NCBI GenBank assembly: GCA_001805105.1
Contig: MHEE01000015.1
Coordinates: 62,001 to 126,000, forward strand
Length of the DNA stretch: 64,000 nt
Reading direction: 5' to 3'
Source: Nitrospirae bacterium GWF2_44_13
Lineage (GTDB): Bacteria > Nitrospirota > Thermodesulfovibrionia > Thermodesulfovibrionales > UBA1546
A model generated the notes under the pieces. The model had not been told where the DNA came from. It did not search any database and worked only from the letters and a program-made list of their open reading frames with translations. The stretch's first letter is position 1, and each line of letters opens with the position of its first letter. Below, one piece after another: positions 1,313-60,196 of the stretch. The position numbers and the translations under genes are program-made.

Positions 1313-1388
1313 GTGAATTGGTGAATCGGTCAATCGGTGAATCGCAATAATTCATTCATCTATTCACCCATCAACCCATTCACCTATT
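1313..1388. repeat. Octamer array with inverted halves
   Basis: Between alaC and lipA lie four near-copies of GGTGAATC, then a short spacer, then about five copies of the complementary octamer type (CATTCACC and variants). The two halves are reverse complements, so the transcript could fold into one long imperfect hairpin. The second half touches the lipA stop codon. The same unit occurs inside hemH at 57524-57563 and 57841-57872. No T-run follows on the lipA strand, so it is not a typical terminator. Confidence 0.75.
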
Positions 1389-2233
1389 TACCGATTATTA
1401 TTATACATCTCCTCCGCATTCATTGAACTCCTTACAAGCGGAGCTGACGCCGCATATCTAAACCCTATTTTAACAGCTGTTTCTTTATATTCATTAAAAA
1501 TCTCCGGCCTTACATATTCTTTAACAGGAAGATTCTGTTTGCCCGGCCTGAGGTATTGGCCTATTGTCACAGTATCGCAGCCGGCATCTTTGAGGTCTTT
1601 CAATACGCTGACAACCTCATTGAAAGTCTCGCCCAAGCCTACTATCAGCCCTGATTTTACGTTAACATCAAGCGCAATCTTTTTTGCATTTCGTAAAACA
1701 TTTAAGGATCTTTCATAATTTGCCTGAGGCCTTGCATACGGATAAAGCCTTGGCACAGTCTCTACATTATGATTATAGACGTCCGGCGCAGAATCAAGGA
1801 CAGTCTTCAGTGCATCGTAATCACCCTTAAAGTCAGGGGTGAGAACTTCCACCGTAGTCTTCGGAAGATGTTTTTTTACTGCCTTTACCGTTTCAGCAAA
1901 ATGCCCGGCGCCGCCGTCAGGCAAATCATCCCTCGTAACAGAGGTTACAACAACGTACTTCAAGCCCATATCCCTTGCAGCCAGAGCAACCCTTTCCGGT
2001 TCCATTTCATCAAGAGGCTTGGGAGCGGAGGACTCTACAGAGCAGAACCCGCAGTTCCTTGTGCATGCAGAGCCGAGAATCATGAAAGCAGCAGTAGGTT
2101 TTGAAAAGCATTCTCCAATGTTCGGGCATCGCGCCTCTTCGCAGACAGTTGAAAGGCGGTGATTCCTTAAAATCTGTTTTGTATCATGCCCCCCCATAGG
2201 GCTTTTCACTTTTATCCACTCCGGCAATCGCAT
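1388..2233 (-). CDS. lipA: Lipoyl synthase
   Basis: This 281-residue radical SAM enzyme inserts two sulfur atoms into protein-bound octanoate to make the lipoyl cofactor of 2-oxoacid dehydrogenases and the glycine cleavage H protein. Both LipA iron-sulfur sites are visible: the auxiliary cluster cysteines C31, C36 and C42 (CEEARCPNIGEC) and the SAM cluster cysteines C57, C61 and C64 (CTRNCGFC). The family's C-terminal RSS serine motif is present (VRSSMNAEE). The length is normal. It is transcribed towards alaC, separated by the octamer array, and its last codon and stop fall at the edge of that array. Confidence 0.96.
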   Translation of the reverse strand: MRLPEWIKVKSPMGGHDTKQILRNHRLSTVCEEARCPNIGECFSKPTAAFMILGSACTRNCGFCSVESSAPKPLDEMEPERVALAARDMGLKYVVVTSVTRDDLPDGGAGHFAETVKAVKKHLPKTTVEVLTPDFKGDYDALKTVLDSAPDVYNHNVETVPRLYPYARPQANYERSLNVLRNAKKIALDVNVKSGLIVGLGETFNEVVSVLKDLKDAGCDTVTIGQYLRPGKQNLPVKEYVRPEIFNEYKETAVKIGFRYAASAPLVRSSMNAEEMYNNNR

Positions 2234-2365
2234 GGTTATTAAACATAAAAGAAATGAAAAAGTTTGTCAATCACGGAAAGGGAAAACGTCATTTAAGAAT
2301 TAAGCCGCGGACAGGCTTTATGTTAAAATGTTAACTATGCTTTATACGGAGGATATTGTTTCCCA

Positions 2366-3202
2366 ATGAACAGGATGCTGCCTTCTCTTTATATTCTGCT
2401 TGCCCTATTCCTGTGGAGCAGTCTCGGCGTAATCGTAAAACTGTCAGGGGTAGCGGTTCATGTGCTTATCTTTTATTCAGTTATAGTCTCTCTTATTGTT
2501 CAGGGAATAATCCTGTCCCGGAAAACTTACAGGAAAGAGTTCCCAGGACTAAAACTGCTTCAATATCCTTTAATTCTTGGTGCTGCTTCATTAATAAATA
2601 CCTTTACTTACTACCTTGCCTTTAAACATACAACGATAGCAAATGCAGTGCTCACTCATTACACCGCCCCTGTCATTGTCGCTTTTCTTGCTCCGTTATT
2701 CCTGAAAGAGAGAGTAACACGGCCGATTATTATTTCAATCGCCATAGCTTCAGCAGGCCTGTGGATTATGCTCAACGGATTTTCATTTAACGAAGGCGAC
2801 GCCCTTGGAATAACCGCGGGGCTGGTATCGGGATTCGCTTATGCGGTAGTCGTTATCCTCATCAGAATTTACACGCAGAGCTTTAATCCTGTAGTGCTTG
2901 CCTTTTTCTCAAACGCAGTCATCGCAATCCTTCTTGCGCCTTTTGTCAGGGAGTTTCCGGTAAATGCGCTCTGGAGTTTTCTGGTAATGGGGATTGTCCA
3001 TTCTACAATAGCCCCTATTCTCTACTTTAAAGGTCTTCGCTACGTCTCTGCCGGCAGAACCGCTGTGTTTGGTTATATTGAGCCTGTTATCGCGATAATA
3101 TTCGGCATAATATTTTTGAGTGAATTGCCGGGAAAAGGCTCAATTATCGGAGGACTGCTGATAATATTTTCAGGGTATTTAACATTAAGAGAGGGGAAAT
3201 AA
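2366..3202 (+). CDS. EamA/DMT-family transporter
   Basis: This 278-residue integral membrane protein has the ten hydrophobic helices of the drug/metabolite transporter superfamily, arranged as two EamA repeats. The first starts at LFLWSSLGVIVKLSG (about 13-27) and the second near GITAGLVSGFAYAVVV. The motif HYTAPVIVAFLAPLFLKER and the matching end of the second repeat (GYIEPVIAIIFGIIFLSE) are typical. The substrate cannot be deduced; relatives export amino acids or other metabolites. It is divergent from lipA. A GGAGG lies about 14 bases before the ATG, which is rather far. Confidence 0.85.
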   Translation: MNRMLPSLYILLALFLWSSLGVIVKLSGVAVHVLIFYSVIVSLIVQGIILSRKTYRKEFPGLKLLQYPLILGAASLINTFTYYLAFKHTTIANAVLTHYTAPVIVAFLAPLFLKERVTRPIIISIAIASAGLWIMLNGFSFNEGDALGITAGLVSGFAYAVVVILIRIYTQSFNPVVLAFFSNAVIAILLAPFVREFPVNALWSFLVMGIVHSTIAPILYFKGLRYVSAGRTAVFGYIEPVIAIIFGIIFLSELPGKGSIIGGLLIIFSGYLTLREGK

Positions 3203-3249
3203 GCAGATCTTCTCCGGAACTTTTGCTGATTTTTCCGCTTCGGATTCCT

Positions 3250-3921
3250 TTAAATACTCAGAGTCCTTTCGTTATCCTTCAGCCACTTTTGCCTTCTTTT
3301 AAAATCAGGCATGATGCTTTTTACTTTATCCCAAAATAATCTTGAATGGTCTCTTTGTTCTAAATGCACAAGTTCATGCACAATTACATAGTCAATTATT
3401 TCCAGCGGAACCATTATCAAACGCCAGCTGAAATTTACCGTTCCCCTTGATCCGCTTGAGCCCCATCTTTTTTGAGCGCCAGTGATTTTGATTGAAAGCG
3501 GCTTATATCCGGTAAGGCTTGAATACCACTCGCAGCGCTCTTTTATCTTCTTTTCCGCGACCGATTTGTACCACTTTATCACAACATCCCTTGCATAAGG
3601 CACTTTTTCCAGAGATAAAAGCAGATTATCTTTAAGCTCAATATCAACGCCAATACTATCCACAATTTTCAGCATATAGCTCTTTCCGAGACAAAAGAAC
3701 GACTCTCCATTTACAAATTCCTTGGCTTTTGGCTTGGGCCTGCTCTGTATCTCCTGCAACTTTGCTCTAATCCAGCCTCGTTTTTCATTAACCAGATTTT
3801 CCAGGTAATCAACAGGGGTTTTAAACGGCGCTCGAATAACAAGCGTTGCATCGTGCGTCAGCACAAGCGCAATCGTTTTTCTTTTTGAGCGGATTATTCT
3901 GCTGATTTTAATTTCTTCCAT
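3250..3921 (-). CDS. YgjP-type zinc metallopeptidase (DUF45)
   Basis: This 223-residue protein belongs to the M48-related YgjP/WLM group of zinc metallopeptidase-like proteins. The signature HELVH is at 182-186 and the likely third ligand is H192 in RDHSRLFW. The block KRWGSSGSRGTVNFSWRL (152-168) is the conserved core of DUF45. There is no signal peptide, so it is cytoplasmic. Genes of this family often accompany type I restriction loci, but none is seen here. It stands alone between the DMT transporter and a gene-poor stretch; its true substrate is unknown. Confidence 0.85.
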   Translation of the reverse strand: MEEIKISRIIRSKRKTIALVLTHDATLVIRAPFKTPVDYLENLVNEKRGWIRAKLQEIQSRPKPKAKEFVNGESFFCLGKSYMLKIVDSIGVDIELKDNLLLSLEKVPYARDVVIKWYKSVAEKKIKERCEWYSSLTGYKPLSIKITGAQKRWGSSGSRGTVNFSWRLIMVPLEIIDYVIVHELVHLEQRDHSRLFWDKVKSIMPDFKRRQKWLKDNERTLSI

Positions 3922-4306
3922 AAAGTGCGGAACTATTATAACAGACGGAGGAAGTTGAAAAAATAGAAGGTAAAGGTGGGCTGGAATTTCAGATTCTTGG
4001 AATGGCAGGATTTAAGTCGTGAGCGACCCGCCCGCAGGAGGGGTCTGGGGAGGAATGCGAGCGGTTTTCGGACTGGGGTTTTTCGGAAAAAAATGGACGG
4101 GCCAATCTGAATGATTACTGCGGTTTGATTTTCTGTTGAGGTTGTGGCCCAATGAAAATCTGCTGAAATTGCTTGCCCCACGATACGCCATGTGCGCTCT
4201 CGTATAATTTCACAAACGGGCTAACATTAAAAAAGCCGTTAAGTAAAATATATGACTCCCAAAGTAAATCTTGAAGCGTATCGTCGGCAAGCTCAATTTT
4301 CAAACC

Positions 4307-4388
4307 AAAGGCGGTGAGCTACTTTTCCGATTATGATACGCACTTGATGCACTCACGCCCTTTGCCTATGGATAAACTCACCGCCTTT
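4307..4388. repeat. 12-bp perfect inverted repeat with 58-base loop
   Basis: AAAGGCGGTGAG (4307-4318) is repeated in inverted form as CTCACCGCCTTT (4377-4388), followed directly by two more T bases and an AT-rich run. The 58-base loop has no obvious coding content. It could act as a terminator-like structure for plus-strand transcription or be the end of a small non-autonomous element. The core sites expected of an integron attC were not seen. Confidence 0.5.
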
Positions 4389-4597
4389 TTAATTTTCTTA
4401 TCAACATTTTTTCTCTCTGATAGGTAGCGTCTTTTTTTGAGGTATGGACTATGACAGGTTATTCATGAAAAGGCAAGGCAGATATGAAACATCCAACAAC
4501 TACTTGGGGAACACTTCCCATCTTCTCCTTCTTCCCCTCACCGCCCCTAAATACTAATCCTTTCCTCCCATTATTTTCAACATCTTTCTCTCTGATA
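4377..4597. repeat. Degenerate direct duplication
   Basis: A block starting with CTCACCGCC and ending TCAACATTTTTTCTCTCTGATA (4377-4422) recurs at 4537-4597, where the end reads TCAACATCTTTCTCTCTGATA. The shared ends are nearly identical while the middles differ in length. This points to an old local duplication rather than a functional array. Confidence 0.45.
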
Positions 4598-4665
4598 TAA
4601 TATTTCATCTGAGGCACCGGCTCAAGCTTAGATTATGAAAGTAATCTTTTCCGATACATGATAAA

Positions 4666-5172
4666 ATGAATGTCATGGAGAAAAAAGAGAGCAATTTTGC
4701 TTTCATAGACAGCCAGAATCTGAATCTTTCAATACGTGCGCAAGGGTGGTTTCTGGATTATAAAAAATTTCGGAAATACCTTGAAGATAAATACAGCATA
4801 ACCAAAGCCTTTCTATTCCTTGGATATGTTCCTTAAAATTAGGACCTTTATACTTCCTTGCAGGAATCAGGCTATATAGTCATCTTTAAACCTACTCTCA
4901 CTTTGCCGAATGGAAAAGTAAAGGGAAATGTTGATGCCGAACTGGTATTGCACACAATGGTTGAATATCAGAGATATGACAAGGCACTGCTTGTTACAGG
5001 TGATGGAGATTTTTATTGTCTGGTGGATTATTTGATAAAGCAGGAGAAACTGCTTAAGCTGATGGTGCCTAACGAAAAGAAGTTTTCTTCATTGTTTAGA
5101 AAAGTTATGTCGCACGTAGTATTTATGAACAATCTTAAGGAGAAGTTAGAGTACAGAAAGGATCCAAAATAA
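4666..5172 (+). pseudogene. NYN-domain (LabA-like) protein with two in-frame stops
   Basis: One reading frame encodes a NYN/PIN-like nuclease domain of about 169 codons. The N-terminal strand has NFAFIDSQNLNLSI with the metal-binding aspartate, and the second half has KGNVDAELVLHTMVE and KALLVTGDGDFYCLV with the other acidic residues. The frame is interrupted only at 4834-4842 by TAA, AAT, TAG, between GYVP and DLYTSLQESGY, where relatives have unbroken sequence. Both stops could be C-to-T changes of CAA and CAG. The downstream part could start at TTG 4858 but would lack the first catalytic aspartate. NYN proteins are thought to be RNases. Either a recent pseudogene or an assembly/strain variant. 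Confidence 0.75.
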
Positions 5173-5174
5173 AA

Positions 5175-5216: not shown

Positions 5217-5296
5217 ATCGTGATTCTGATGTTAGTATAACATACTATTAATTCTTGTCAATAGTGCTTCAAAAAATATAGTACTGGCTTATTGAT

Positions 5297-5642
5297 TGGT
5301 GGAGGCGGCGGGAATTGAACCCGCGTCCGAAAGCACTACTCTCAGGTTTCTACATGTTTGTTCTGCCTACTTAATCTCGGATGCTGAACCGCCGGCAAAC
5401 GGGCTGTTTCATCACCCCATCTCCCTTTATCTTGCCTCAGGTTCAGGAGAAAGACCTGAGACCAGCCTGCTGCCTTCGCTGCATCCAAAACACAGGCAAT
5501 CCCGGTGCAGCGTGCCGCTTTAATTAAGCAGCAAGTGCCAGTTCGTTGTTGGCTTTTGTGTTTTTTCCCATCTTTTAACGTGGTGATGGAGCCACGACAT
5601 GCCGCCTAAGCCTCGTAACCCCCGTCGAGCCCTTTCGCCCCC
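5297..5642 (-). ncRNA. ssrA: tmRNA
   Basis: Transfer-messenger RNA of about 346 nt, which rescues stalled ribosomes with SmpB. The 5' acceptor strand GGGGGCG (5642-5636) pairs with CGCCTCC before the encoded CCA (5299-5297). The T-arm is visible as GGTTCAATTCC, and the 5' end has the typical GGGCTCGACGGGGG block. The tag reading frame ends at TAA (5526-5524). Read back from there, the degradation tag is probably GKNTKANNELALAA, with the resume codon GGA at about 5568; the exact resume codon is inferred. smpB lies immediately upstream on the same strand. Confidence 0.95.
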
Positions 5643-5666
5643 GAGGACACTTATATAATAACATAT

Positions 5667-24750: not shown

Positions 24751-24780
24751 GATACACGATGCATGACTCATGATACATGA
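24751..24780. repeat. Heptamer array at the end of the Glf-like gene
   Basis: Four heptamers in a row: GATACAC, GATGCAT, GACTCAT, GATACAT. The array crosses the stop codon of the Glf-like gene (24768-24770), so the last codons of the protein (NHVS) come from the repeat. A further pair of heptamers (ATCCTGT, ATCCTGC) lies about 20 bases inside the gene at 24801-24814. Confidence 0.65.
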
Positions 24781-26186
24781 TTTTCAGCCTTCTTTTCTTC
24801 ATCCTGTATCCTGCATTTTTTAATTATCTTTTTTGCTGTTTTTATCCCTGATTCTATGGCATGATCCATGTTGTAATACCTGAACATTCCGCTCCGGCCT
24901 GTGATATGGAGATTTTTGAATCCGCCAAGATACTCATATATCTCATCACATCTTTCCCTGTATCCAATCTCAAACAGCGGATAGGCATTCGGCACTCTTA
25001 GCACAGCGCTGTCTATTACTTCGTGCTTTTTGATAAATTTCATGTTCTCCAGATTTTCAACAGTAACGGCGGTAAGCTCTTCATCACTCTTATTCCATAT
25101 CCTGTCACCCTTAAAACTGAAAAACTCCGCCACAAGAATAGACTTGCCCTCCGGAGCCATTTTCCCGCTCCAGTTCGCTGGCTCATGGATTCTGCCAAAA
25201 GGTACCTTCTGTTCCGGTATGTATATCCACGTCTGATCTGTAACCCTCTTCCTATTTATCATCACAGCAGCTATCACAAGGTCTCTGAATCTGAGTTGTG
25301 AGGCAGCGGTCAATATATTTTCAGGAGGAGCAGGATGCAGCATCTTCAGCAGTTTTGTTATTGGTATGCTTGATATAAATTCCATTCCATTTTCTGTTAC
25401 AAACCGCTCACGGCTATTTATTACAACACTCTCTACTTTAAAATCTGAATGGTTTATGCGCTCTATGCGTGAATCCGTAAGGACACTGTTGTTCCCTGCT
25501 TCTATGTCCTCTTTGAGCCTGTCAGAGATACGGCCGATGCCCAGTTGAGGGTACAGAAAAACATCAACATGGGAAGCCACATCTTTAGCGTTAAGTTTGA
25601 AAAATGCGTTTTTAACTGCGCTTGCCAGCGACAATCCCCTGATACGCCGGGCAACCCATTCTGCGCTTATCCTGCTGCAGTCAATACCCCATACTTTTTC
25701 GCTGTACTCCCTGAAGTAGATATTAAACATCTTCCTGCCGAAGTTGCTGACCACCCAATCCTCAAGGGAAATGTTCTGAGGTTTTCTTATCAGGTTTTTT
25801 ATTTTTTCCGCAGCATAGTCAGCCAATATTTCCATTGTCGTGGATACGCCAAGGCCTAATATTGCATTGAAAGGTTTAAGCGGGTAATCAAAGTATTTAT
25901 TCCGCATGTAGATTTTGCTTTTGCGCTGGACAGAGATTATCTCTTCCCTCATCAGTTCTTTTACAAAATTATTTAGTTCTCTATCCTTTGTGAAAAACCT
26001 GTGTCCGCCGAGGTCAAATCTGAACCCGTCGTGAATTATTGTCTTTGAAAGCCCGCCAACAGTAGAATCACTTTCAAACACCTTAACCCCAAGTTCCGCC
26101 TTGGTTAAGACATATCCCGCAGAAAGCCCTGCGAGCCCGCCGCCAAGTATTATTGTTGTATTTTTTCCCAGAATTTGATCAAGCAT
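24768..26186 (-). CDS. UDP-galactopyranose mutase-like FAD protein
   Basis: This 472-residue flavoprotein has the Rossmann FAD motif GGGLAGLSAGYVL (about 16-28), then VGGLSKTIIHDGFRFDLGGHRFF, as in the Glf/amine-oxidase-like 'FAD-dependent oxidoreductase' family of surface-polysaccharide loci. The C-terminal FAD contact NLHITGRSGMFRYYNMDHAIESG is clear. It probably acts on a nucleotide sugar or a lipid-linked sugar, but it may not be a true mutase. Its C-terminal end overlaps a heptamer array, so the last residues may be variable. It is followed by the radical SAM gene. Confidence 0.78.
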   Translation of the reverse strand: MLDQILGKNTTIILGGGLAGLSAGYVLTKAELGVKVFESDSTVGGLSKTIIHDGFRFDLGGHRFFTKDRELNNFVKELMREEIISVQRKSKIYMRNKYFDYPLKPFNAILGLGVSTTMEILADYAAEKIKNLIRKPQNISLEDWVVSNFGRKMFNIYFREYSEKVWGIDCSRISAEWVARRIRGLSLASAVKNAFFKLNAKDVASHVDVFLYPQLGIGRISDRLKEDIEAGNNSVLTDSRIERINHSDFKVESVVINSRERFVTENGMEFISSIPITKLLKMLHPAPPENILTAASQLRFRDLVIAAVMINRKRVTDQTWIYIPEQKVPFGRIHEPANWSGKMAPEGKSILVAEFFSFKGDRIWNKSDEELTAVTVENLENMKFIKKHEVIDSAVLRVPNAYPLFEIGYRERCDEIYEYLGGFKNLHITGRSGMFRYYNMDHAIESGIKTAKKIIKKCRIQDEEKKAENHVS

Positions 26187-30348: not shown

Positions 30349-31371
30349 TCAATTTTGCCTGATAATATCTGCTACTTCTTTGGCTCCTGTCATCTCCATA
30401 CATTTAATGCCTTTGCACTTTTTCCTGTAGCACGGAGAGCATTCAAGCCCCTTTCGGATTATGACATGCGACTTGCCGTAAGGGCCTGTCCTCAGCGGGT
30501 TCGTAGGCCCGAATATGGCAAATACAGGCACATTCAGCGCAGCAGCGATATGCATTGGCCCCGAGTCATTTGTGACTACAAACCTTGCATTTCGCATTAT
30601 CTCTATAAGCTCTTTCAGGTTCGTTTTTCCCACAATTGATACGGCATTGCTGCCGGAATTCTTTACTACAATGCCAGCTATGTCAATATCCGATTCCCCG
30701 CCTACAATAACGGATCTTATGGATAACATAGATGCAAGCTCTCCGAATCTTTCCGGATGCCATCTCTTTGTCTCCCATCGCGCGCCGGGAACAATTACAG
30801 CGTATTTATCAGGAAGCTGAAAGCTGAAAGGTGAAAGCTGAGAGGTGAAAGAGAGAGGGAATGGGAACTTCACCTCGGAAGTGTCGCATCCGAGAAATTT
30901 TGCCATCTCAAGATACCTGTCCACTGCATGAACATCCTTGCCTGCCTTAACAGTGTGTGTATAAAATATCCTGCTGCCTTCCCTCGCCTCTTTAAAACCT
31001 ATTCTTACAGGCGCGCCGGTCGCCTTTGCAAGAATCCCGCTTCTGAGAAGGCCCTGCAGGTCAATAACAATATCATATCTCTCTGCCTTTAAAGATTTAA
31101 ACAAAGACCTCAGTTCTTTTATCGTAGCCCCTGCGCCCTTAATCCTCTTCCAATCGTCCTTATTAATAATCCAGAGCTTGTTTATCATTGGATGCCCCTC
31201 AAGCAGCCCTTCAAGCCCCCTTGCGATAATCCAGTGAATCTCTGCTTTGGGGAAGCTGTCTCTGAGCACATTTAGAAATGGAAGGCTGTGCACAATATCT
31301 CCAAGCGAGCTTGGTTTTATGACAAGGATTTTCCGGAGCGGTTTCTTGAGTTTCAAAACATCCATTGACAT
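30349..31371 (-). CDS. Heptosyltransferase (GT9, WaaC-like)
   Basis: This 340-residue GT9 enzyme has the N-terminal motif ILVIKPSSLGDIVHSLPFL (about 15-33), and in the second domain the ADP-heptose-binding VVTNDSGPMHIAAALNVPV, followed by FGPTNPLRTGP. It adds heptose to lipid A-Kdo in the LPS core. Odd: the segment LSFTSQLSPFSFQL between the domains is encoded by a heptamer array (30815-30849). The gene is the first of an operon that continues with the DsrE/F/H-like genes. Confidence 0.88.
   Translation of the reverse strand: MSMDVLKLKKPLRKILVIKPSSLGDIVHSLPFLNVLRDSFPKAEIHWIIARGLEGLLEGHPMINKLWIINKDDWKRIKGAGATIKELRSLFKSLKAERYDIVIDLQGLLRSGILAKATGAPVRIGFKEAREGSRIFYTHTVKAGKDVHAVDRYLEMAKFLGCDTSEVKFPFPLSFTSQLSPFSFQLPDKYAVIVPGARWETKRWHPERFGELASMLSIRSVIVGGESDIDIAGIVVKNSGSNAVSIVGKTNLKELIEIMRNARFVVTNDSGPMHIAAALNVPVFAIFGPTNPLRTGPYGKSHVIIRKGLECSPCYRKKCKGIKCMEMTGAKEVADIIRQN
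30815..30849. repeat. Heptamer array inside the heptosyltransferase gene
   Basis: Five heptamers in tandem on the plus strand: AGCTGAA twice, AGGTGAA, AGCTGAG, AGGTGAA. The array is translated in frame on the minus strand (TSQLSPFSFQL) in the interdomain linker. The same architecture recurs in the WaaF domain at 35132-35166. Confidence 0.75.
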
Positions 31372-34437: not shown

Positions 34438-35970
34438 ATGTTTGACAAAAACTGCAAAAACCTGCTGGTAAGAGGCGTCAACTGGATCGGAGACGCCGTA
34501 ATGACAATGCCGGCGCTCAGGGCGCTGAGAAAGGAATTGCCGGATACTAAGATATCCCTTCTCGTTAAACCATGGGTTGCGCCACTATTTGAAAACAACC
34601 CGTTCATAGACGACATTCTTCACTATGAAGATAAATACAGCAGCATAAGTGGTAAATTCAGGCTGTCTTCAGTTCTTAGAACAAAAAACTTTTGCAGTTC
34701 AATACTTTTTCAGAACGCGTTTGATGCCGCTTTAATCGCTTTTCTTTCAGGCATACCGCAGAGAATAGGTTATAACAGGGATTTGAGAGGCTTTCTTCTT
34801 ACGGATTCAATTCCTTTTAATAATGATGACAGAAAGATGCATCACATAGCATATTACCTGAACATTCTCCGGCAGGCAGGCATAAACGCTGAATTTTCTT
34901 TGCCTTATATCTATTTATCTCTCAACGAGAGACTCAGAGCAAGAGATGCCCTTAAGGGACTGAAAAGGCCTGTTGTCGGCGTCAACCCTGGAGCTTCCTA
35001 CGGCTCAACAAAGAGATGGCAGCCTGAAAAGTTTGCAGAGGTGACAAGAAAAATAATCTCGGAGCTCGGCGGAAGTGTCGTTATATTTGGAGGACAATCG
35101 GAAATTGAAATAGCAGAAGAAATCGTTCATGAATCCCAAATCTCAAATGTCAAATCTCAAATTCTAACCATGACAGGAAAAACAGACCTCAGAGAACTGT
35201 CAGCCCTTATATCCGAGTGCGACACGCTTCTTACAAACGACTCAGGGCCAATGCATATTGGTTATGCTGTCAGAACTCCCTTGGTAGCTATATTCGGTTC
35301 AACAGACCCTGAATTAACAGGCCCGGCGGGTATCGGAAACACAGTAATCAAAAAAAATACGGACTGCAGCCCCTGCTTTGAAAGAACATGCGGCAGGAAT
35401 AAGATGGACTGTATGGATGCTATAACAACTAACGAGGTTTTTGACGCCATAGAGCGTTCTATCCCAAAAAACAAGGCAGTTTTTTTTGACCGGGACGGCA
35501 CACTGTGTAAAGATGCAGAATATCTGAACAATTTTGACAATCTGGAAATATTCAAAGAAGTCTCAGCGTTAATCCATCTCAAGGACAAAGGCTATAAGCT
35601 AATCGGCATTAGCAACCAATCCGGTATTGCACGGGGCATAGTCAGCGAGAACTTCACAAGAGAGGTAAACAGAATTTTTATAGAGCAATACGGTTTTGAT
35701 GATTTTTATTACTGTCCTCACCACCCTGATGAGCATTGCCCATGCAGAAAACCAGAGCCTGAAATGCTTCTAAGGGCCAGGGCTAAGCATGGCATTGACC
35801 TTAAACAATCCTACGTAATCGGTGATAAAGAGATTGATATGCTGCTTGCAAAATCAGCGGGCGCAAAAGGCATTCTTGTCCTGACGGGACAGGGCGCTGA
35901 ATCAGCCAATGCGGATTATGTTGCAAAGGACCTGAATGAAGCAGTAAAATGGATTCTCGGCAATCCCTGA
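34438..35970 (+). CDS. Heptosyltransferase II-GmhB fusion
   Basis: A 510-residue fusion. Residues 1-340 are a GT9 heptosyltransferase (RGVNWIGDAVMTMPALRAL at the start; TNDSGPMHIGYAVRTPLVAIFGSTDP later). Residues about 345-510 are an HAD-superfamily D,D-heptose 1,7-bisphosphate phosphatase (GmhB): the catalytic DRD at 351-353 (AVFFDRDGTL), GISNQSGIARG, the zinc loop CPHHPDEHCPCRKPEP, and IGDKEIDM. The two activities are a donor-precursor step and a transfer step of the LPS inner core. A heptamer array lies at 35132-35166 in the first domain. Confidence 0.92.
   Translation: MFDKNCKNLLVRGVNWIGDAVMTMPALRALRKELPDTKISLLVKPWVAPLFENNPFIDDILHYEDKYSSISGKFRLSSVLRTKNFCSSILFQNAFDAALIAFLSGIPQRIGYNRDLRGFLLTDSIPFNNDDRKMHHIAYYLNILRQAGINAEFSLPYIYLSLNERLRARDALKGLKRPVVGVNPGASYGSTKRWQPEKFAEVTRKIISELGGSVVIFGGQSEIEIAEEIVHESQISNVKSQILTMTGKTDLRELSALISECDTLLTNDSGPMHIGYAVRTPLVAIFGSTDPELTGPAGIGNTVIKKNTDCSPCFERTCGRNKMDCMDAITTNEVFDAIERSIPKNKAVFFDRDGTLCKDAEYLNNFDNLEIFKEVSALIHLKDKGYKLIGISNQSGIARGIVSENFTREVNRIFIEQYGFDDFYYCPHHPDEHCPCRKPEPEMLLRARAKHGIDLKQSYVIGDKEIDMLLAKSAGAKGILVLTGQGAESANADYVAKDLNEAVKWILGNP
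35132..35166. repeat. Heptamer array inside the heptosyltransferase domain
   Basis: Five heptamers: AATCCCA, AATCTCA, AATGTCA, AATCTCA, AATTCTA. The array is translated in frame as SQISNVKSQIL, between the HES and the TMTGKTDL segment. In other heptosyltransferases this loop is short. The array unit differs from that of the other heptosyltransferase gene, but the position in the protein is comparable. Confidence 0.75.
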
Positions 35971-39668: not shown

Positions 39669-39869
39669 GCTTTGATATGCAGGAGGCTACGGCTGAATTA
39701 AGGCAAGATTCACGGGTCTGTCAGAATAGGGGCTGAAGACTTCATGAAATGGAGCGGATAGCCCCGCATAAGAACTTGTGAGAGCTTAATATGTAGTGCT
39801 AACGCCGCACTTTTACAAAGGTAGTTTAATATTGCCGAAGGACAGCCACAGCCTCGTGTAAAGCGGTGT
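39669..39869. other. 200-base intergenic region with hairpins
   Basis: No gene seen. GGGGCT and AGCCCC (39729-39765) enclose a second hairpin (GAAGACTTC). A small stem GTGCTAACGCCGCAC lies at 39797-39811. The region could hold a structured RNA, but it fits none of the RNA families I can recall (RNase P, 6S, SRP, cobalamin or group II). It lies between convergent genes. Confidence 0.4.
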
Positions 39870-49962: not shown

Positions 49963-50430
49963 TTACTTGCTCTTTACTCCCCTAATCTTATCAAGCGTGT
50001 CCTGATAAAGTTCCTTCTTTGAAGGATTAAGCTCTATCGCCTTAAGAGCCAGTTCCTCTGCCTCAGTGAGGTTTTCCTTTTTTGTGTAATAAAGCCATGC
50101 AAGATTGTTATGAGCATCGGCATTTTGAGAATCTTTTTTAATCGCTTTTCTATAAGCCGACTCTGCCTCGTCAAAATCATTTTTCTGAAAATAGATATTC
50201 CCGATATAAAGATACGCCAGCGGAAGTTTTTTTGACGCAAGTTTGTATTCCTTCAACGCGTTGTCAATTTCTCCTTTTTTCTCGTACGCTACTCCGAGGT
50301 TTATGTGCTCTTCCGGGCTTAACGGATCGTCAAGGATGATTATTCGCGGGAGAGAGCAGGCAACAAACAGCATACAGCATACAGTAGACAGTAAACAGCG
50401 GGTTAGAATTTTTACTTTTAAACTTTTCAC
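49963..50430 (-). CDS. TPR lipoprotein
   Basis: This 155-residue protein has a lipoprotein signal (LLSTVCCMLFVACSLP) and three tetratricopeptide repeats (EEHINLGVAYEKKGEIDNALKEYKLA, AYLYIGNIYFQKNDFDEAESAYRKA, DAHNNLAWLYYTKKENLTEAEELALKA). The GTG start at 50430 overlaps the stop of the C39-peptidase-like gene (GTGA); the open frame runs 14 codons further upstream. The signal peptide is encoded by a heptamer array (50361-50400). This gene is the usual third partner in PA2779/PA2778 loci. Confidence 0.86.
   Translation of the reverse strand: MKSLKVKILTRCLLSTVCCMLFVACSLPRIIILDDPLSPEEHINLGVAYEKKGEIDNALKEYKLASKKLPLAYLYIGNIYFQKNDFDEAESAYRKAIKKDSQNADAHNNLAWLYYTKKENLTEAEELALKAIELNPSKKELYQDTLDKIRGVKSK
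50361..50400. repeat. Heptamer array coding a lipoprotein signal peptide
   Basis: CAACAAA, CAGCATA twice, CAGTAGA, CAGTAAA and a partial CAGCG follow each other. On the minus strand this array encodes the hydrophobic core and lipobox region of the TPR lipoprotein (RCLLSTVCCMLFVA). So repeat expansion seems to have created or changed the signal peptide. Confidence 0.75.
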
Positions 50431-51002
50431 TTTCTTTTGATAAGCAGCGTCCAGAATTTTGTCTTCTCCCATGTCTTTATAAAATCCCCTTCAGATATGA
50501 ACTTGCCTTTGTCTTTTCCTGAATTCACAATCACTCCATCCTCGTTATACCCTACAACAACCATGAAATGATTTGCCTGCACTGCCCAAAAGCCATAATC
50601 AACAAGCACAATAAGCGGATAACCTGAATCTATATTTTTTTTCAGGTCCTGCATATTCCCTGAATATTGTTCTGCAAGCAGTCCCTTCTTTTGAGGATAA
50701 ATTACCATGTCAATATTCAGAGTGCCTTTTGCGGACTTGCTGTATATTTCCTTTGCAATATCATCAGGGGTAATGTTTACTTTCCAGTAGTTCATAACGC
50801 CTGCAAGAGACGCGGGCCCGCACTGATATGCCTCCTGAGCATAGAAGGGAACATTTGAGATAATACGGTTTTGTTCAGACCCCTGCAAAACGGTTGAAGG
50901 AGCGCATGAATGCAGGAAAAATGAGATAAGAGCGAGAAATAAATAAGCAGGCATGGAGATAATCCATGCCTGCTTATTTACAGACTGAAATTTTAGCCTC
51001 AT
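50427..51002 (-). CDS. C39-like cysteine peptidase lipoprotein (PA2778 family)
   Basis: This 191-residue exported protein has a lipoprotein signal (LFLALISFFLHSCAPS) and a C39-type papain fold: catalytic Cys in QEAYQCGPASLAGVMNYW and His in ANHFMVVVGYN; the third position reads VNSGK. The domain matches the PA2778 family of presumed peptidases. It lies between the PA2779-like gene and the TPR gene, an arrangement known from other proteobacteria. The substrate is unknown. Confidence 0.88.
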   Translation of the reverse strand: MRLKFQSVNKQAWIISMPAYLFLALISFFLHSCAPSTVLQGSEQNRIISNVPFYAQEAYQCGPASLAGVMNYWKVNITPDDIAKEIYSKSAKGTLNIDMVIYPQKKGLLAEQYSGNMQDLKKNIDSGYPLIVLVDYGFWAVQANHFMVVVGYNEDGVIVNSGKDKGKFISEGDFIKTWEKTKFWTLLIKRK

Positions 51003-55448: not shown

Positions 55449-55512
55449 GTCATTCCGCACCTGATGCGGAATCCAGTTCTTTTTTCTGGATTCCTGCTTT
55501 CGCAGGAATGAC
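55449..55512. mobile_element. REP-like palindromic element
   Basis: A 64-base nested palindrome: GTCATTCC and GGAATGAC at the ends, GGAATCCAG and CTGGATTCC inside, with a TGCTTTCGCA mini-hairpin. The type GTCATTCC...CTGGATTCC...GGAATGAC is common in environmental genomes. It lies between the DUF465 gene and ilvD. Confidence 0.8.
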
Positions 55513-55522
55513 GTATTCTATT

Positions 55523-55754: not shown

Positions 55755-57125
55755 TTATATTTCCTCCTTTCTTATTATTGTCTCTGCCAATTTAAATGAA
55801 TTTTCTATGCAGTCATTAACGCCTATCCCCCTGTATGCATTCCCGGTTAAATACAGGTTTTTGTATTTTAATAACATCCCGTCAACTGCTTTCAGTTTCC
55901 TGTCATGCCCTATATTATACTGCGGAATTGCCTTTTCGTGTCTGTAAATTTTTACAAAATCAGGCTGAATTTTTATATCCATTATATCCTTCAGTTCTTC
56001 TGCGGCAACATCAATCAGCCTGCTGTCGCCCTGCATCGCAAGTTCGGATGCCCTTGCGCCTCCCATCATGCTCCTTAAAAGCACATATCCGTCAGGAGCT
56101 CTTCCGGGAAAAATGCTTGAATCCCACAAAGTCCCGAGGATTTTTCTGCGCTCTTTATATGGGATGAGAAAACCAAATCCATCCAGTTTATGAGCAATGC
56201 GTTCTTTCCTGTATCCAAAACACACAATAGAGACAGAAGGATACGGTATCTCTGAAAGAACCGACGAGAGAGGCCTGTCAAGGTTTTTTAAAATCTCCGC
56301 TGCTGAATATGCAGGGGATGCTATTACAAGAATCTCCGTCTCTACAACCATGCCGTCAGAGAGATGGACAGCATAACCCTTATTCTTTCTTTCAACGGAA
56401 ACCACTTTGCTTCCAACTCTTAGTTTTTCTTTAAGATAACCTTTCAAGGAATCTATTATCATTCCCATGCCGTTGTGAAAAGATGTAAGAGTGCCTCCGG
56501 GACCGGCGCTGACTTTTCGATTTCCTGATTTCTTAGCCTCTCTTTGCAGTTTTATCATACCTTTTATAAGGCTTCCGTATTTCTCTTCAAGATTAAAAAT
56601 CTTTGGGAAACAACTTTTAAGGCTTAGTGATTCAGGATTCCCCGCATAAATGCCTGATGCCATAGGATCAATGAGTTTTTCGTATGCCTCTTTGCCGAGC
56701 CTTCTCCTCGCAAAATCAGCAAGGGTTTCATCATCTGAGCTGCCCCTCGGAGCGAAAAACTCATACATTACCCTTAAGCGGCCGTAAAGGCTCAAGAGAT
56801 CGGAGGTAAGAAACGATACAGGAGATTCAGGCAGAAGGTTTAATTTCCCGCCAGAAAAAACATATCTTTTTCTGGCTGCATCACTGCTTCTAAACGGATT
56901 AATCAGAAGTTTAGTGGCAAGCTCTAAAGTCTTGGGCCTGTTGTCGAGGAAACCGTTAACTCCGCCTTCGCAGAGAAAACCGTTCACTTTTTCCGTCCAT
57001 ATCTTTCCGCCAGGCCTTTTTTCGGATTCGAATACTACTACATCTGCCGCTGGTTCAGATTCAAGAAGCGTAAATGCCAGCGAAAGCCCTGAAATACCGC
57101 CGCCTGCAATGACTATTCTATCCAA
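55755..57125 (-). CDS. hemY: Protoporphyrinogen oxidase
   Basis: This 456-residue FAD enzyme oxidises protoporphyrinogen IX to protoporphyrin IX. The dinucleotide motif IAGGGISGLSLAFTLLE is at the start, and the C-terminal NLYLTGNAYRGIGVNDCIENS is the second FAD contact. It overlaps hemH by 13 bases. An oxygen-dependent HemY is notable in a probable anaerobe; alternative electron acceptors are conceivable. Confidence 0.92.
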   Translation of the reverse strand: MDRIVIAGGGISGLSLAFTLLESEPAADVVVFESEKRPGGKIWTEKVNGFLCEGGVNGFLDNRPKTLELATKLLINPFRSSDAARKRYVFSGGKLNLLPESPVSFLTSDLLSLYGRLRVMYEFFAPRGSSDDETLADFARRRLGKEAYEKLIDPMASGIYAGNPESLSLKSCFPKIFNLEEKYGSLIKGMIKLQREAKKSGNRKVSAGPGGTLTSFHNGMGMIIDSLKGYLKEKLRVGSKVVSVERKNKGYAVHLSDGMVVETEILVIASPAYSAAEILKNLDRPLSSVLSEIPYPSVSIVCFGYRKERIAHKLDGFGFLIPYKERRKILGTLWDSSIFPGRAPDGYVLLRSMMGGARASELAMQGDSRLIDVAAEELKDIMDIKIQPDFVKIYRHEKAIPQYNIGHDRKLKAVDGMLLKYKNLYLTGNAYRGIGVNDCIENSFKLAETIIRKEEI

Positions 57126-58171
57126 CCAAGCTCCTTCACATTCTTTATTACTATGTCTTTCAGCGCTTCAATAAAAAGCGGATGAGTATTTAACGATTCT
57201 GTCCGTTTCAGATTAATTCCAAGGCCTTTTGCCATCTGCATATATAATATATCAATCTCATATAACGTCTCAATATGGTCAGACACAAAACTTATCGGGA
57301 CCATGAGAATATTTTTAATATTCCTGCCTGCAAGCTCTTTGAGTGTTTCTTCTGTTGAAGGCCTAAGCCATTTTACAGGCCCGCTCCTGGATTGAAAACT
57401 CAGGTTCCATTTTATCGGTATCCGCTTTACAATCTCTTCAATAGTTCTCTCAATATGACGCACATAAGGGTCGCCCTCATCAATAAACTTTTCAGGAAGG
57501 CTGTGGGCGCTGAAGAGAACATGGATGGGTGGATGGGTGAATGGGTGAATGGGTGAATCGGCGTTGAATAATTCCATTCCCTTCCTTATCACATCAACAA
57601 GCGCTTCAATATAAAACGGATGGCCATACCATGAAGGCGCGCAGAAAACTTCCACTTCCGTGTAATGTTTTGATGCAACCTCTCTGAATTTTGATAAAGA
57701 CGAGCCTGATGTTGCCAGAGAATACTGGGGATAAAGGCTGAGTCCAATAAGTTTTCTAACCCCGTCATTATAAATCTGAGGCATCACGTCTTCTATTAAA
57801 GGATGCCAGTAACGCATCCCGACGTAAACTTTAAAAACCGGTGAATGGGTGAATGGGTGAATGGGTGAATCGGGAGATTTCTCGGAATTCGGAGTTAGTA
57901 GTTCGGAGACTTCCGCTGAACGCTTTAGCGCCTCTTCCAGCGCCTTTGCTTGTGCATTGGTAATATCAAGTAGGGGAGATTTGCCTCCTATGAGGCGGTA
58001 ATAACTCTCCGTCTTTTTATATCTCAGTGTTGATATGAGCCGTGCAAGAGGTTTCTGCATAAATGGAGGGCCCAGTTGAATTATCTTTCTGTCTGAAAAT
58101 AAATTATAAAGGAACGGCCTCACAGCCTGAATAGAATCAGGACCGCCGAGATTTAGAAGAATAATTCCTAT
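57113..58171 (-). CDS. hemH: Ferrochelatase with repeat-coded insertions
   Basis: This 352-residue enzyme inserts Fe2+ into protoporphyrin IX. The N-terminal GIILLNLGGPDSIQAVRPFLYNLFSD (conserved) extends 16 codons beyond the first GTG (58123). The only start there is ATA at 58171, or an ATT. The motifs KVYVGMRYWHP and VLFSAHSLPEKFI are present, the latter with the catalytic His. Two segments rich in His, Pro, Phe and Thr (SPIHPFTHSP and SPIHPFTHPP) are encoded by octamer arrays and are absent from other ferrochelatases. The reading frame stays open across both. It follows the response-regulator gene. Confidence 0.88.
   Translation of the reverse strand: MGIILLNLGGPDSIQAVRPFLYNLFSDRKIIQLGPPFMQKPLARLISTLRYKKTESYYRLIGGKSPLLDITNAQAKALEEALKRSAEVSELLTPNSEKSPDSPIHPFTHSPVFKVYVGMRYWHPLIEDVMPQIYNDGVRKLIGLSLYPQYSLATSGSSLSKFREVASKHYTEVEVFCAPSWYGHPFYIEALVDVIRKGMELFNADSPIHPFTHPPIHVLFSAHSLPEKFIDEGDPYVRHIERTIEEIVKRIPIKWNLSFQSRSGPVKWLRPSTEETLKELAGRNIKNILMVPISFVSDHIETLYEIDILYMQMAKGLGINLKRTESLNTHPLFIEALKDIVIKNVKELGWIE
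57524..57563. repeat. Octamer array 1 inside hemH
   Basis: Five octamers: GATGGGTG twice, AATGGGTG twice, AATCGGCG. The minus-strand reading gives DSPIHPFTHPPIH, just before VLFSAHSLP. The unit is the same as at 57841-57872 and at 1313-1388. Confidence 0.8.
57841..57908. repeat. Octamer and heptamer arrays 2 inside hemH
   Basis: Four octamers GTGAATGG (57841-57872, last one GTGAATCG) are followed after a few bases by a heptamer set CTCGGAA, TTCGGAG, TTAGTAG, TTCGGAG (57881-57908). Together they encode about 25 residues between a helix and KVYVGMRYWHP. Two unit types lie next to each other, which suggests independent or successive events at a permissive site. Confidence 0.75.
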
Positions 58172-58193
58172 CGGCTCCTTTAAATACCCTTTC

Positions 58194-58583
58194 TCAGTCC
58201 GTGGTATCGTATCTCTCCCCTTTCTGCTGAGTTATTTCATCAATTACCTCCAGAATGTCCTTTACACCAGCAGGCTTGGTAAGGTAACCATCAAACCATT
58301 CTTTGCCAAGCTTCTCCTCTTCCTCTATCATCGCATATGCCGTAAGGGCTATTATCGGTATCTTTGCAGTGGACTGTTCTGATTTAAGTATCTTTGCTGC
58401 CTCAATACCATCCATCTTAGGCATCCGTATATCCATAAGTATGAGGTCAGGGATTTCCCTCTTGGCAGTCTCAACAGCCTCTTCACCGTCCCTTGCAAGA
58501 ATAGTGATATGGCCCCCGGATTCCACTATGATATTTAAAAGCTTCAGGTTCTCTTTATTGTCGTCGACTACCAATATTTTCAT
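58194..58583 (-). CDS. Single-domain response regulator
   Basis: This 129-residue CheY-like receiver has the acidic pocket DD at 7-8, the phosphoacceptor D51 ([13 protein letters not shown]), and the conserved Lys in YLTKPAG. There is no output domain. It overlaps the histidine kinase stop by 4 bp (ATGA), so they work as a pair. Hits to DivK-like regulators are expected. Confidence 0.93.
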
Positions 58584-60196
58584 TTCCTCACCGGTATTAT
58601 AAATATAAACCTGCTTCCCTTTCCTTCCTCACTCTCAACCCATATTCTTCCGCCGTGAAGTTCAACAATCCTTTTGCTGATGCTGAGCCCAAGCCCTGTG
58701 CCTTCGTATTTCTTTGTTAGTGTGGATTCAAGCTGCTGGAAGGGTTGAAAGAGTTTTTTCGTGCCTTCAGGAGAAATGCCGATGCCTGTATCCTCTACGG
58801 AGATTTCGAAGAAATCGAAATCTCCGAGTTCAGAGTCAGGAGTCTGGGGAGGCTGAATACCCCTAACCCCTAAATCCTCACTCTTTACTCGTCGTGCAAC
58901 GACGCGCACCGAGCCTCCATCAGGCGTAAACTTAAAGGAATTTCCGAGAAGGTTCAAGAGCACCTCTTTTATCTTCACAGCATCAGCAGTTACAGCCCCT
59001 ACATCATCAGGAATATCAGCGGTTAATTTAATTTTGTGTTTTATTGCCTTCTCCTTAAACATCAGCAGGCTTCCCTGAACAACCTCTTTAATGTCAAACT
59101 CTCCCAATTCAAGTTCCATTCTGCCAGACTCTATCTTTGAAAGGTCAAGGATATCATTTATAAGCCGCAACAGATGTTTTCCGCTCTTCCATATAGACTG
59201 AACATATTCTTTCTGCTGCTCTGTAACATTGCCTGCCAGTCCTTCAGTCAAAACTTCCGAAAAGCCTATAACTGAATTCAACGGCGTCCTTAATTCATGC
59301 GACATATTTGCAAGGAATTCTGATTTCGCCCTGCTTGCAGCCTCTGCCTGAAGTTTTGCCTTCTCAAGTTCCGCTGTCCTTTCCTTTACTTTTTGTTCAA
59401 GCCCTTCAAGCAGTTCTTTATTCTCTTTAAAAAGAAAACTCAGAGACTGGGACATATCATTGAATGCCTTTGATATATTGCCAATCTCATCAGCAGTCTT
59501 TACATCAACCCTTACATCAAAATTCACTGTCTGGATTTCTCCTGCTGCATCTTTTAATTTCCATATAGGCTTGATAATACTGCTCCTTACATAAAACACA
59601 ATACAGCCCGCTGCAATAAAGAAAAATCCGAGCACACAAAACCTTAAGGTGTCAAAATCCTTTATCTCTTTCTTGTAATGCGTTCTAAGGGACTTTACAA
59701 AGGCTTCAACCTTAGGGAGATTATCACGGATGGCTGAATGGCATTTTTTACATGCCTCATTTTTTCTTTCAGAAGAAAATTTTAATATATCTTGCAGGAC
59801 AGGCTTCTGGGTTTTGCTCCACAGCTCAATCAATGTCTTAACCTGTGAAATTGATTCTTTGTTATGCTCAGGCATTGGCTCCAGTCCGAGTTTTTCGCTT
59901 CCATCTCTCAGTCCATAAAGCGCATCTTCATATTCAGCCATTCTACTTTCAGCATTTTTTATGAATATCTCTTTCTCATGAGACTGAGGGAGAAGAAGTA
60001 AAGACATAATCTGATATGACATGCTAAGGGACAGCATCCTCTGCCTGCCGGCAACGTTTATCCTTGTGGCTTCGTCTTTTATATGATGGGTGAAGACAAA
60101 ACCCGCATAGACGTAAACAGCAAGAAACGTAACCATTATGCTGCTGATGAAGATAAACTTTGCGGTGAGGGATTTGAATTTAAACATTGTTTTCAT
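58580..60196 (-). CDS. Sensor histidine kinase with haem-c-type periplasmic domain
   Basis: This 538-residue sensor has TM1 (about 12-35), a periplasmic PilJ/NarX-like helical domain ([19 protein letters not shown]), TM2 (185-203), HAMP, a coiled coil, HisKA with H300 ([10 protein letters not shown]) and a HATPase domain (N-box 415-423, DTGIG 469-473). The periplasmic domain contains C149-x2-C152-H153 (ACKKCHSAI), a haem c-binding motif, which would make it a redox or gas sensor. A 20-residue insertion (about 437-459) between the N and G1 boxes comes from heptamer repeats. The following receiver overlaps by 4 bp. Confidence 0.88.
58826..58893. repeat. Heptamer arrays inside the histidine kinase gene
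   Basis: GAGTTCA, GAGTCAG, GAGTCTG (58826-58846), and after 12 bases ACCCCTA twice, AATCCTC, ACTCTTT, ACTCGTC (58859-58893). They encode the linker [20 protein letters not shown] between two boxes of the ATPase domain. In relatives this loop is short or contains other short-repeat sequences. Confidence 0.65.

What the first reader, a model, noticed from the sequence alone, without database searches (positions are those of the whole stretch)
1313..58893. A family of 7- and 8-bp tandem arrays, mostly inside intact genes
At about eight sites (1313-1388, 24751-24814, 30815-30849, 35132-35166, 50361-50400, 57524-57563, 57841-57908, 58826-58893) four or more copies of a 7- or 8-bp unit lie in tandem. 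Each site has its own unit. Seven of the sites are in or at the ends of open reading frames and keep the frame. The units resemble the short tandem heptamers (STRR) of cyanobacteria, but such arrays inside housekeeping genes are unusual. They may come from slippage or from a dedicated process, and may create protein variation (phase or length variation).
Basis: partly seen in the sequence, partly recalled or inferred. Interest (0 to 1): 0.85.

Follow-up and report, generated by a model that had tools for sequence, protein, structure and literature searches.

The report
Heptamer-armed DNA hairpins inside housekeeping genes
A little-known bacterium has its genome peppered with small hairpin-shaped DNA elements built from short 7- or 8-letter repeats; many are read through as extra loops in housekeeping enzymes, and in sister species the same spots are often filled by quite different repeats.

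Summary
The arrays are real and far beyond chance, but each site does not have its own unit. In 862 kb (43%) of this genome (Nitrospirota, probably Thermodesulfovibrionales) only periods 7 and 8 and their multiples are enriched, and most arrays belong to a few genome-wide families. Many are arms of palindromic elements: 33 of 35 left-type and 33 of 43 right-type GATnCAn arrays face each other, commonest form (GATGCAY)4-GAT-T7-ATC-(YTGTATC)4, 69 bp. Of 109 arrays, 66 lie wholly inside called ORFs; hosts include MurD, Alr, CarB, TsaD and HemH. All 19 in-ORF GATnCAn elements are read from one strand (open frames predict about 60-68%), the 16 internal ones as one recurring peptide. In congeners the same slot holds a 7/8-bp array in 28 of 37 comparisons (control 27 of 904), in about 14 a different family. 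No Y1 transposase or RVT_1 reverse transcriptase was found in this genome; what spreads the elements is unknown. One phage, seen in three metagenomes, carries ten heptamer arrays in a shared 6.9 kb: the longest has 16, 16 and 11 units, nine short ones keep their length. The elements behave like Rickettsia palindromic elements but differ in architecture. Phase variation is not supported.

The parts
1312..1392 (.). Two-arm octamer element: left arm GGTGAATY x4, short spacer, inverted right arm (as reverse complement GGTGAATR); between lipoyl-synthase-like ORF 1388..2233(-) and aminotransferase-like ORF 123..1298(-), touching the 3' end of the former
   Evidence: no congener ortholog among the loci searched. 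The two gene names are read from the translations; no family search was run on them
24751..24815 (.). Degenerate GATnCAn two-arm element overlapping the 3' end of ORF 24768..26186(-) (amine-oxidase-like), whose last codons and stop it supplies (by eye)
   Evidence: congeners: G007 same family, G002 octamer hairpin, G005 AGCTGAC heptamers
30349..31371 (-). Host gene: glycosyltransferase family 9 (heptosyltransferase)
   Evidence: Pfam PF01075, E 3.4e-57
30814..30858 (-). AGCTGAA heptamer array (about five units) inside that gene, read as FTSQLSPFSFQL
   Evidence: G002 same unit with a nested palindrome; G005, G006 and G007 AGTTGAA at the same slot and length
34438..35970 (+). Host gene: heptosyltransferase fused to a HAD-like domain
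   Evidence: Pfam
35132..35166 (+). AATCTCA heptamer array, read as ESQISNVKSQI
   Evidence: G003 and G006 same unit, G005 TCGTCAC heptamers, G007 no array
50355..50405 (-). CAGCATA/CAGTAGA heptamer array in the N-terminal part of ORF 49963..50472(-), a TPR protein with a lipoprotein-like start
   Evidence: other heptamer families in G005, G003, G001 and G006 (by eye), absent from paralogous copies in G002:C133 and G001:C27
57113..58123 (-). Host gene: ferrochelatase hemH
   Evidence: Pfam PF00762, E 8.6e-96; PDB relatives
57525..57563 (-). Octamer array, ferrochelatase loop 2 (SPIHPFTHPPIH)
   Evidence: same octamer in G002, another palindrome in G005, none in G004
57840..57871 (-). Octamer array, ferrochelatase loop 1 (SPIHPFTHSPVF)
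   Evidence: octamer also in G002, other palindromes in G004 and G005
57873..57935 (-). Degenerate CGGAGTT-type heptamers next to the octamers in the same loop (by eye)
58580..60196 (-). Host gene: sensor histidine kinase-like
   Evidence: translation only; named by eye, no family search run on it
58826..58893 (-). Degenerate two-arm heptamer slot in that gene; weak as an array
   Evidence: only 2.1 copies; in congeners a GATGCAT-type element (G004), ACTGTGA-type heptamers (G005), TTTCGGA-type heptamers (G002), by eye

Best explanation
The arrays are whole or partial arms of several families of small, non-autonomous, dispersed palindromic elements whose arms are mostly 3-5 tandem copies of a 7- or 8-bp unit. 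Shown: families with fixed units that recur genome-wide and in relatives; GATnCAn arrays head-to-head around a short AT-rich spacer, commonest form 4+4 units, 69 bp; the two arms usually differ in class (pyrimidine or purine) at one unit position, so that the stem is mismatched about every 7 nt; elements lie between genes and in frame inside enzymes; the same slot often holds a different family in sister species. Inferred: elements spread by copying into positions that tolerate them (gene ends, surface loops), selection removes insertions in the wrong frame or orientation, old elements are overwritten or deleted and new ones take the slot, and whole units are gained or lost afterwards by slippage. 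Phages can carry such arrays. The enzyme that spreads them is unknown; no Y1 (RAYT/IS200) transposase and no RVT_1 reverse transcriptase was detected in this genome.
For: Only periods 7 and 8, shared families. Octamer 54 matches vs 0 control; hairpin pattern 59 (overlapping registers) in own genome, 14 of 61 genomes, control 0. 33 of 35 left and 33 of 43 right arrays paired head-to-head, 0 pairs in the opposite order. Arm classes opposite in 27 of 33 by strict majority (29 of 33 with ties broken) and 28 of 36 in a second set. 66 of 109 arrays wholly in called ORFs; 19 of 19 in-ORF elements R-first; same peptide frame in the 16 internal ones. Hosts by Pfam. Slot test 28 of 37 vs control 27 of 904; MurD and HemH slots across genera. 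The MurD element peptide recurs in other long open frames. Phage carriage and unit-level length change. HemH inserts fall in a low-confidence loop and a coil of an otherwise confident model.
Against: No near-identical copies: best pair 13 of 16 variable sites among 17 full elements, unit order only weakly shared (P 0.02), so no sign of a recent burst. No transposase identified (only PF01797 and PF00078 were searched); RVT_1 does occur in congeners G004 and G006 and in G008. No clean insertion with a target-site duplication was shown. In G008 only 2 of 6 elements follow the arm rule. The folding difference between strands holds inside ORFs (17 of 19) but not outside (7 of 12, mean -20.4 vs -20.0). 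Two left and ten right GATnCAn arrays have no partner, and the ferrochelatase octamer arrays have none. Gene calls are my own hexamer-scored ORFs; three of the 19 in-ORF elements overlap the called start. 10 of 37 slot comparisons show the same unit and 9 no array, so some arrays are simply inherited or lost.
Confidence: 0.62

Rival explanations
1. Repair-driven rewriting: hairpins at these slots are cut or stall replication, and the gap is filled by copying from another array elsewhere, so one family replaces another without any transposase.
For: Same slot, different family, with flanks of 73-96% identity; no Y1 transposase or RVT_1 found in the own genome; composite slots with two families side by side.
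Against: Does not by itself explain the oriented 69-bp form or the partly recurrent outer boundary. End-joining and hairpin-nuclease genes were not searched.
Confidence: 0.17
2. Local replication slippage at unconstrained sites, with 7- and 8-bp steps favoured by the polymerase (a hypothesis quoted for heptamers in PMC4692102, passages seen).
For: Only 7 and 8; whole-unit change of 35 bp in a long phage array, and 4+4 vs 1+1 units in MurD.
Against: Slippage alone should give site-specific units, not genome-wide families; GGTGAATN recurs in genomes whose fetched stretches have about 42% and 65% G+C; paired inverted arms; nine short phage arrays kept their length.
Confidence: 0.12
3. Adaptive contingency loci: array length is varied to switch or tune proteins.
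For: Arrays lie in coding sequence and differ between species.
Against: Hosts identified are mostly housekeeping enzymes (MurD, CarB, TsaD, Alr, HemH); commonest length is 23 codons; families, not only lengths, differ.
Confidence: 0.03
4. Regulatory or terminator hairpins kept by selection.
For: Per base, arrays are denser outside called ORFs: 32 intergenic and 11 partly, with 88.4% of the sample coding.
Against: 66 of 109 are inside ORFs, in-ORF elements on the strand whose transcript folds less well in 17 of 19.
Confidence: 0.04
5. Assembly or binning artefact.
For: The window is from an 18-contig genome without a name here; no reads were seen.
Against: Same families in many separate assemblies, with modest numbers also in the one-contig genome G026 (5 period-7 and 1 period-8 arrays in 100 kb), and in phage contigs of three metagenomes.
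Confidence: 0.01

Closest known systems
Rickettsia palindromic elements (RPEs)
   Same: Palindromic, multi-family, inserted in frame in unrelated housekeeping genes, read as a conserved peptide; orthologous sites can hold different RPE groups (passages of PMC3767692 and PMC10969869).
   Different: Here commonly 69 bp with arms made of 7/8-bp tandem units, in Nitrospirota; RPEs are given as 100-150 bp (table rows seen: 84-192) from Rickettsia and Wolbachia. No sequence comparison with RPEs was run.
Heptamer arrays of cyanobacteria (STRR, name recalled) and of Xanthomonas/Nostoc (GGGNATC type)
   Same: Tandem 7-bp units, often about four, spread over the genome, some inverted pairs (passages of PMC4692102).
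   Different: Those are mostly intergenic (7-11% overlap genes in Xanthomonas); here 66 of 109 lie wholly in called ORFs, octamers occur too, and the units differ.
TAACTGA heptamer repeats of Beggiatoaceae
   Same: Genome-wide heptamer arrays with a patchy distribution over phyla (abstract and one section of PMC4679880).
   Different: Direct repeats mostly just upstream of start codons in the Beggiatoaceae genome, proposed as regulator sites; not hairpins in genes.
REPINs mobilised by RAYT transposases
   Same: Two inverted repeats forming a hairpin, non-autonomous (passages of PMC3116915).
   Different: No Y1 transposase found in this genome; arms are tandem arrays; elements are largely inside genes.
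MITEs
   Same: Small, non-autonomous, inverted repeats, sometimes fused in frame to genes (passages of PMC10969869).
   Different: No target-site duplication or cognate transposase shown here.

Membership tests
Rickettsia palindromic elements | Palindromic repeat in many copies | tested here: met
   33 two-arm GATnCAn elements in 862 kb
Rickettsia palindromic elements | In-frame insertion in unrelated protein genes with a recurring peptide | tested here: met
Rickettsia palindromic elements | Length about 100-150 bp | tested here: not met
   commonest 69 bp (9 of 33); 14 of 25 have 4+4 units
Rickettsia palindromic elements | Host is Rickettsia or Wolbachia | tested here: not met
   named relatives are Nitrospirota
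Rickettsia palindromic elements | Sequence kinship with a known RPE group | not tested
   no RPE sequence was compared
STRR heptamers of cyanobacteria | Tandem 7-bp units | tested here: met
   45 period-7 arrays, but also 14 of period 8
STRR heptamers of cyanobacteria | Mainly outside genes | tested here: not met
   66 of 109 wholly in ORFs, 11 partly, 32 intergenic
STRR heptamers of cyanobacteria | Same units present in cyanobacteria | tested here: inconclusive
   octamer pattern in 0 of 20 genomes titled as cyanobacteria (1 of 30 handles positive, a Nitrospirae bin); heptamer units not tested there
REPIN/RAYT | Cognate Y1 (RAYT) transposase in the genome | tested here: not met
   PF01797: 0 matches in own genome; rings in 5 of 14 control genomes
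REPIN/RAYT | Inverted doublet that can form a hairpin | tested here: met
MITE | Target-site duplication | tested here: inconclusive
   slots are mostly rewritten rather than empty vs filled; flanks only inspected
Reverse-transcriptase-made repeats | RVT_1 gene in the genome | tested here: not met
   PF00078: 0 in own genome, 5 of 16 genomes positive, among them G004, G006 and G008, which have the hairpins; rings in 3 of 14 controls
Contingency (phase-variable) repeats | Frequent frame-changing length variants within a population | not testable with these tools
   no reads; nine short arrays did not vary between three near-identical phage copies

The most novel reading that the evidence does not exclude
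A dedicated copying process, carried in part by phages and spread patchily across a phylum, writes hairpins from a small dictionary of 7- and 8-bp units into fixed genomic slots and overwrites one family by another, so that housekeeping proteins keep exchanging the sequence of their surface loops between sister species.
Probability: 0.2. Interest if true: 0.92.

Novelty: new variant of a known kind. Interest (0 to 1): 0.74.

Why it matters
Tandem heptamers are reported as the most abundant short arrays between genes in a wide range of prokaryotes, with no clear clue to their function (passage of PMC6344855). Here they appear as arms of oriented palindromes that sit in frame in housekeeping genes and are replaced family by family at the same slot, which gives a concrete system for testing how heptamer periodicity arises and how such elements spread. 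It would also extend RPE-like protein-coding palindromes to another phylum and show natural loop replacement in MurD, ferrochelatase and other well-studied enzymes.

Tried and rejected
Each-site-has-its-own-unit: rejected. Reverse-transcriptase or telomerase-like end extension, which would explain inverted arms: weakened, no RVT_1 in the own genome (though three array-bearing relatives have one), and the arms differ in class, which equal extension would not give. RAYT/IS200 mobility: not supported. Recent whole-element copying: unit-order test gives only a weak signal. Joint growth of both arms: equal arms in 17 of 36, P 0.07; length correlation 0.42, P 0.004, in a set with one 1+1 outlier. 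Known RNA family: only tmRNA in the window at the gathering threshold. Orientation bias: with open frames of the 12 elements outside ORFs as expectation (60% R-first) P is 6e-5 for 19 of 19; with those of the 19 in-ORF elements (34 of 50, my arithmetic from the same call) it is about 7e-4; both rest on few elements. Literature: of the eight searches of the open-licence library only one search used Nitrospirae/Thermodesulfovibrio terms; the 12 of 107 papers it listed showed none on such elements by title. This is not proof of absence. PMC6749651 (satellites in prokaryotes) was seen in passages only.

Rows dropped or chosen: the HemH alignment used 24 of the 30 loci (L055 and L064-L068 left out), 56 of 61 genomes having a match; one search used the window protein and 40 of 80 loci; one search used the 30 loci returned, where 41 of 41 genomes have some match (in G004 only a weak, probably paralogous one; in G012 in pieces). 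The slot test used two 20-kb regions, one picked because it is array-dense. Stretches of G001-G008, G046, G065, G074, G083 and G154 were picked because they hold arrays or match array regions, so their densities are biased. In one search one 'different unit' row (window 24751, G007) is by eye the same family, and one 'no array' row (MurD, G006) is a 1+1 form of the same family. Family names of arrays and listings were read by eye.
Full report
WHAT WAS CHECKED. Tandem Repeats Finder confirms arrays at seven; the eighth (58826) has only 2.1 clear copies. A lag-match scan of 862,119 bases of the same genome (window plus stretches of contigs C15, C9 and C12) gives 45 arrays of period 7 and 14 of period 8; other periods from 3 to 25 give 0-2 apart from the multiples 14, 16 and 21, and three Markov-3 simulations give 0 throughout. 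At a looser cut there are 109 arrays, 90 of period 7 and 19 of period 8.

THE UNITS FORM FAMILIES. Sixty of the 109 arrays are of the GATGCAT/GATACAG type and 13 of the GGTGAATN type. GGTGAATNGGTGAATN has 54 (partly overlapping) matches in the genome, its reversed control none. In 295 genomes drawn from the phylum, three tandem copies occur in 20 (12 of 135 genera), control 0; in family f24, outside the window's class, the three genomes searched have 138, 363 and 613 overlapping matches, although the stretches fetched from them have about 65% G+C.

ANATOMY. GATnCAn arrays come as hairpins: 33 of 35 left-type and 33 of 43 right-type arrays face an inverted partner within 45 bp, and no pair has the opposite order. 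Among 25 elements with at least three units per arm, 14 have 4+4 units; the commonest spacer is 7 nt (13 of 25) and T-rich. The consensus is (GATGCAY)4 GAT TTTTTTT ATC (YTGTATC)4, 69 bp; 9 of 33 have exactly that length. One arm usually has a pyrimidine at position 7, the other, in its own direction, a purine (27 of 33 by strict majority; 28 of 36 in a second set), so that this position is mismatched in the stem. In G008 only 2 of 6 follow the rule. The two strands of the MurD copy fold at -32.4 and -17.5 kcal/mol; the Y-first strand is the stronger in 17 of 19 in-ORF elements (means -26.5 and -19.3) but only in 7 of 12 others (-20.4 and -20.0). The octamer element at 1312 shows the same arm opposition by eye.

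LOCATION. With ORFs scored by hexamers (806 genes, 88.4% coding) 66 of 109 arrays lie wholly inside ORFs, 11 partly and 32 between genes; per base they are still denser between genes. Of 33 two-arm GATnCAn elements 19 are inside ORFs, all read R-first; the rest are 11 outside (6 Y-first, 4 R-first on the + strand, 1 ambiguous) and 3 partly inside. Open frames alone predict 60% R-first from the elements outside ORFs, or 68% from those inside, so stop codons alone hardly explain 19 of 19 (P about 6e-5 or 7e-4, the second figure by my arithmetic). Sixteen are internal and read in one peptide frame, e.g. IQDAGYKIQDNINHASCIMHHAS; three overlap the called start. In the sample nine octamer arrays inside ORFs are read as the ATTCACC strand, the only stop-free one. 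Pfam hosts of the GATnCAn elements include MurD, alanine racemase, CarB, TsaD, HypF, a MiaB-like enzyme, UDG and a P-type ATPase; the MurD element peptide also finds several other long open frames by tblastn (capped list). In ferrochelatase the inserts fall largely where the alignment to solved structures has gaps; in an AlphaFold2 model (mean pLDDT 90.6) loop 1 is the one region under 50 (blocks of 57, 49 and 75) and loop 2 is a coil at 80-88.

SLOT RE-OCCUPATION. Ten array slots were compared with seven congeners, 37 comparisons in all: 28 have a 7/8-bp array in the relative (10 same unit, 3 near, 15 different, one of which is by eye the same family), 9 have none; random slots in the same regions have one in 27 of 904. 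At C15:441097 the window's genome has the GATGCAT element, G002 and G003 AAAATTC-like, G005 and G007 GTGAAAA-like heptamers, G001 octamers. In MurD slot B the peptide of the GATGCAT element is present in G000, G013 and G008 (three genera), a 1+1 form in G006, while G001, G002, G003, G005 and G007 have other inserts. HemH, the heptosyltransferase at 35132, the TPR protein and the kinase also show family changes between congeners; the heptosyltransferase at 30815 shows a nearer change, AGCTGAA to AGTTGAA at equal length.

DYNAMICS. In MurD the window's genome has 4+4 units and G006 1+1 with the same 7-nt spacer, 42 bp apart. A scan of viral contigs for three tandem GATRCAN units followed by GAT gave 33 stretches, 7 of them with a two-arm element; the octamer gave 2. 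Three stretches, from three metagenomes, are 99.6-99.9% identical over their long BLAST matches. One of them (L396) encodes a terminase, portal, head protease and major head protein, so it is a phage. Over a shared 6.9 kb the three differ by 8-13 substitutions, by one 35-bp indel in the longest of ten heptamer arrays (16, 16 and 11 units), and by one 12-bp indel near, not in, another array; the nine short arrays have no indel. No match to 8.1 kb of it in the annotated phage collection at megablast sensitivity.

MACHINERY. Y1 transposases and RVT_1 reverse transcriptases were not found in this genome; the searches ring in 5 and 3 of 14 control genomes. RVT_1 is present in G004, G006 and G008. 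Full elements are diverged: no pair above 13 of 16 variable sites, unit order only weakly conserved. So there is no sign of a recent burst, and the agent of spread is open; other transposases, end joining and hairpin nucleases were not searched.

DISTRIBUTION. The GATnCAn hairpin pattern occurs in 14 of 61 genomes, all in family f1: 8 of 8 of the genus and 6 of 8 others; 0 of 45 of other families; control 0. The period 7/8 excess is strong in the genus, G008, G046 and f24 (stretches picked for arrays), modest in G011 and G026, and 0-1 per 100 kb in G009, G019, G027 and G028.

READING. The elements work like Rickettsia palindromic elements, whose literature also reports different groups at one orthologous site, but are shorter, heptamer-armed and in another phylum; I do not file them as RPEs. 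They share periodicity with STRR-type heptamers but not the intergenic preference. I rate them a new variant of protein-coding palindromes with the mobility mechanism unresolved.

Noticed in passing
window 39681-39855: A repeat of about 175 bp with dozens of partial or full copies over the eight genomes of the genus, between convergent ORFs; no Rfam match even at a relaxed threshold.
   Followed up: partly
window 55449-55515: A 67-bp palindrome (TCATTCCGCA...GGAATGACG) with dozens of copies, most of the listed ones in G005.
   Followed up: no
L396, L390, L399 (IMG/VR contigs): A phage seen in three metagenomes with 10-13 heptamer arrays of many families in 8-14 kb; one array differs by five units between copies.
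   Followed up: partly
G074, G083, G065 (family f24): Genomes whose fetched stretches have about 65% G+C, with 138-613 overlapping three-unit octamer matches each, against 25 in the window's genome.
   Followed up: partly
L087:16996-17060 (C15:442996) and the heptosyltransferase of G002 (L231): A small G+C-rich palindrome (CCTCGGCGA..) sits inside or at the end of heptamer arrays, a nested insertion.
   Followed up: partly
L219, L220, L375 (G002, G003, G004): Other G+C-rich palindromes (read as PPLVKGGKGG or PSPSGGEGKGEG) occupy the same protein slots as the heptamer elements, one of them also in another genus (G014).
   Followed up: partly
in-ORF GATnCAn elements of the window's genome: All 19 are read from the R-first strand, the more weakly folding one in 17 of 19; open frames alone predict 60-68%.
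   Followed up: yes
L370 (G002:C133), L371 (G001:C27): Probable paralogues of the TPR protein lack the heptamer segment altogether.
   Followed up: partly
window 5297-5642 (-): tmRNA gene (Rfam RF00023).
   Followed up: no
G000:C15, about 413650-413713: Run of N in the assembly.
   Followed up: no
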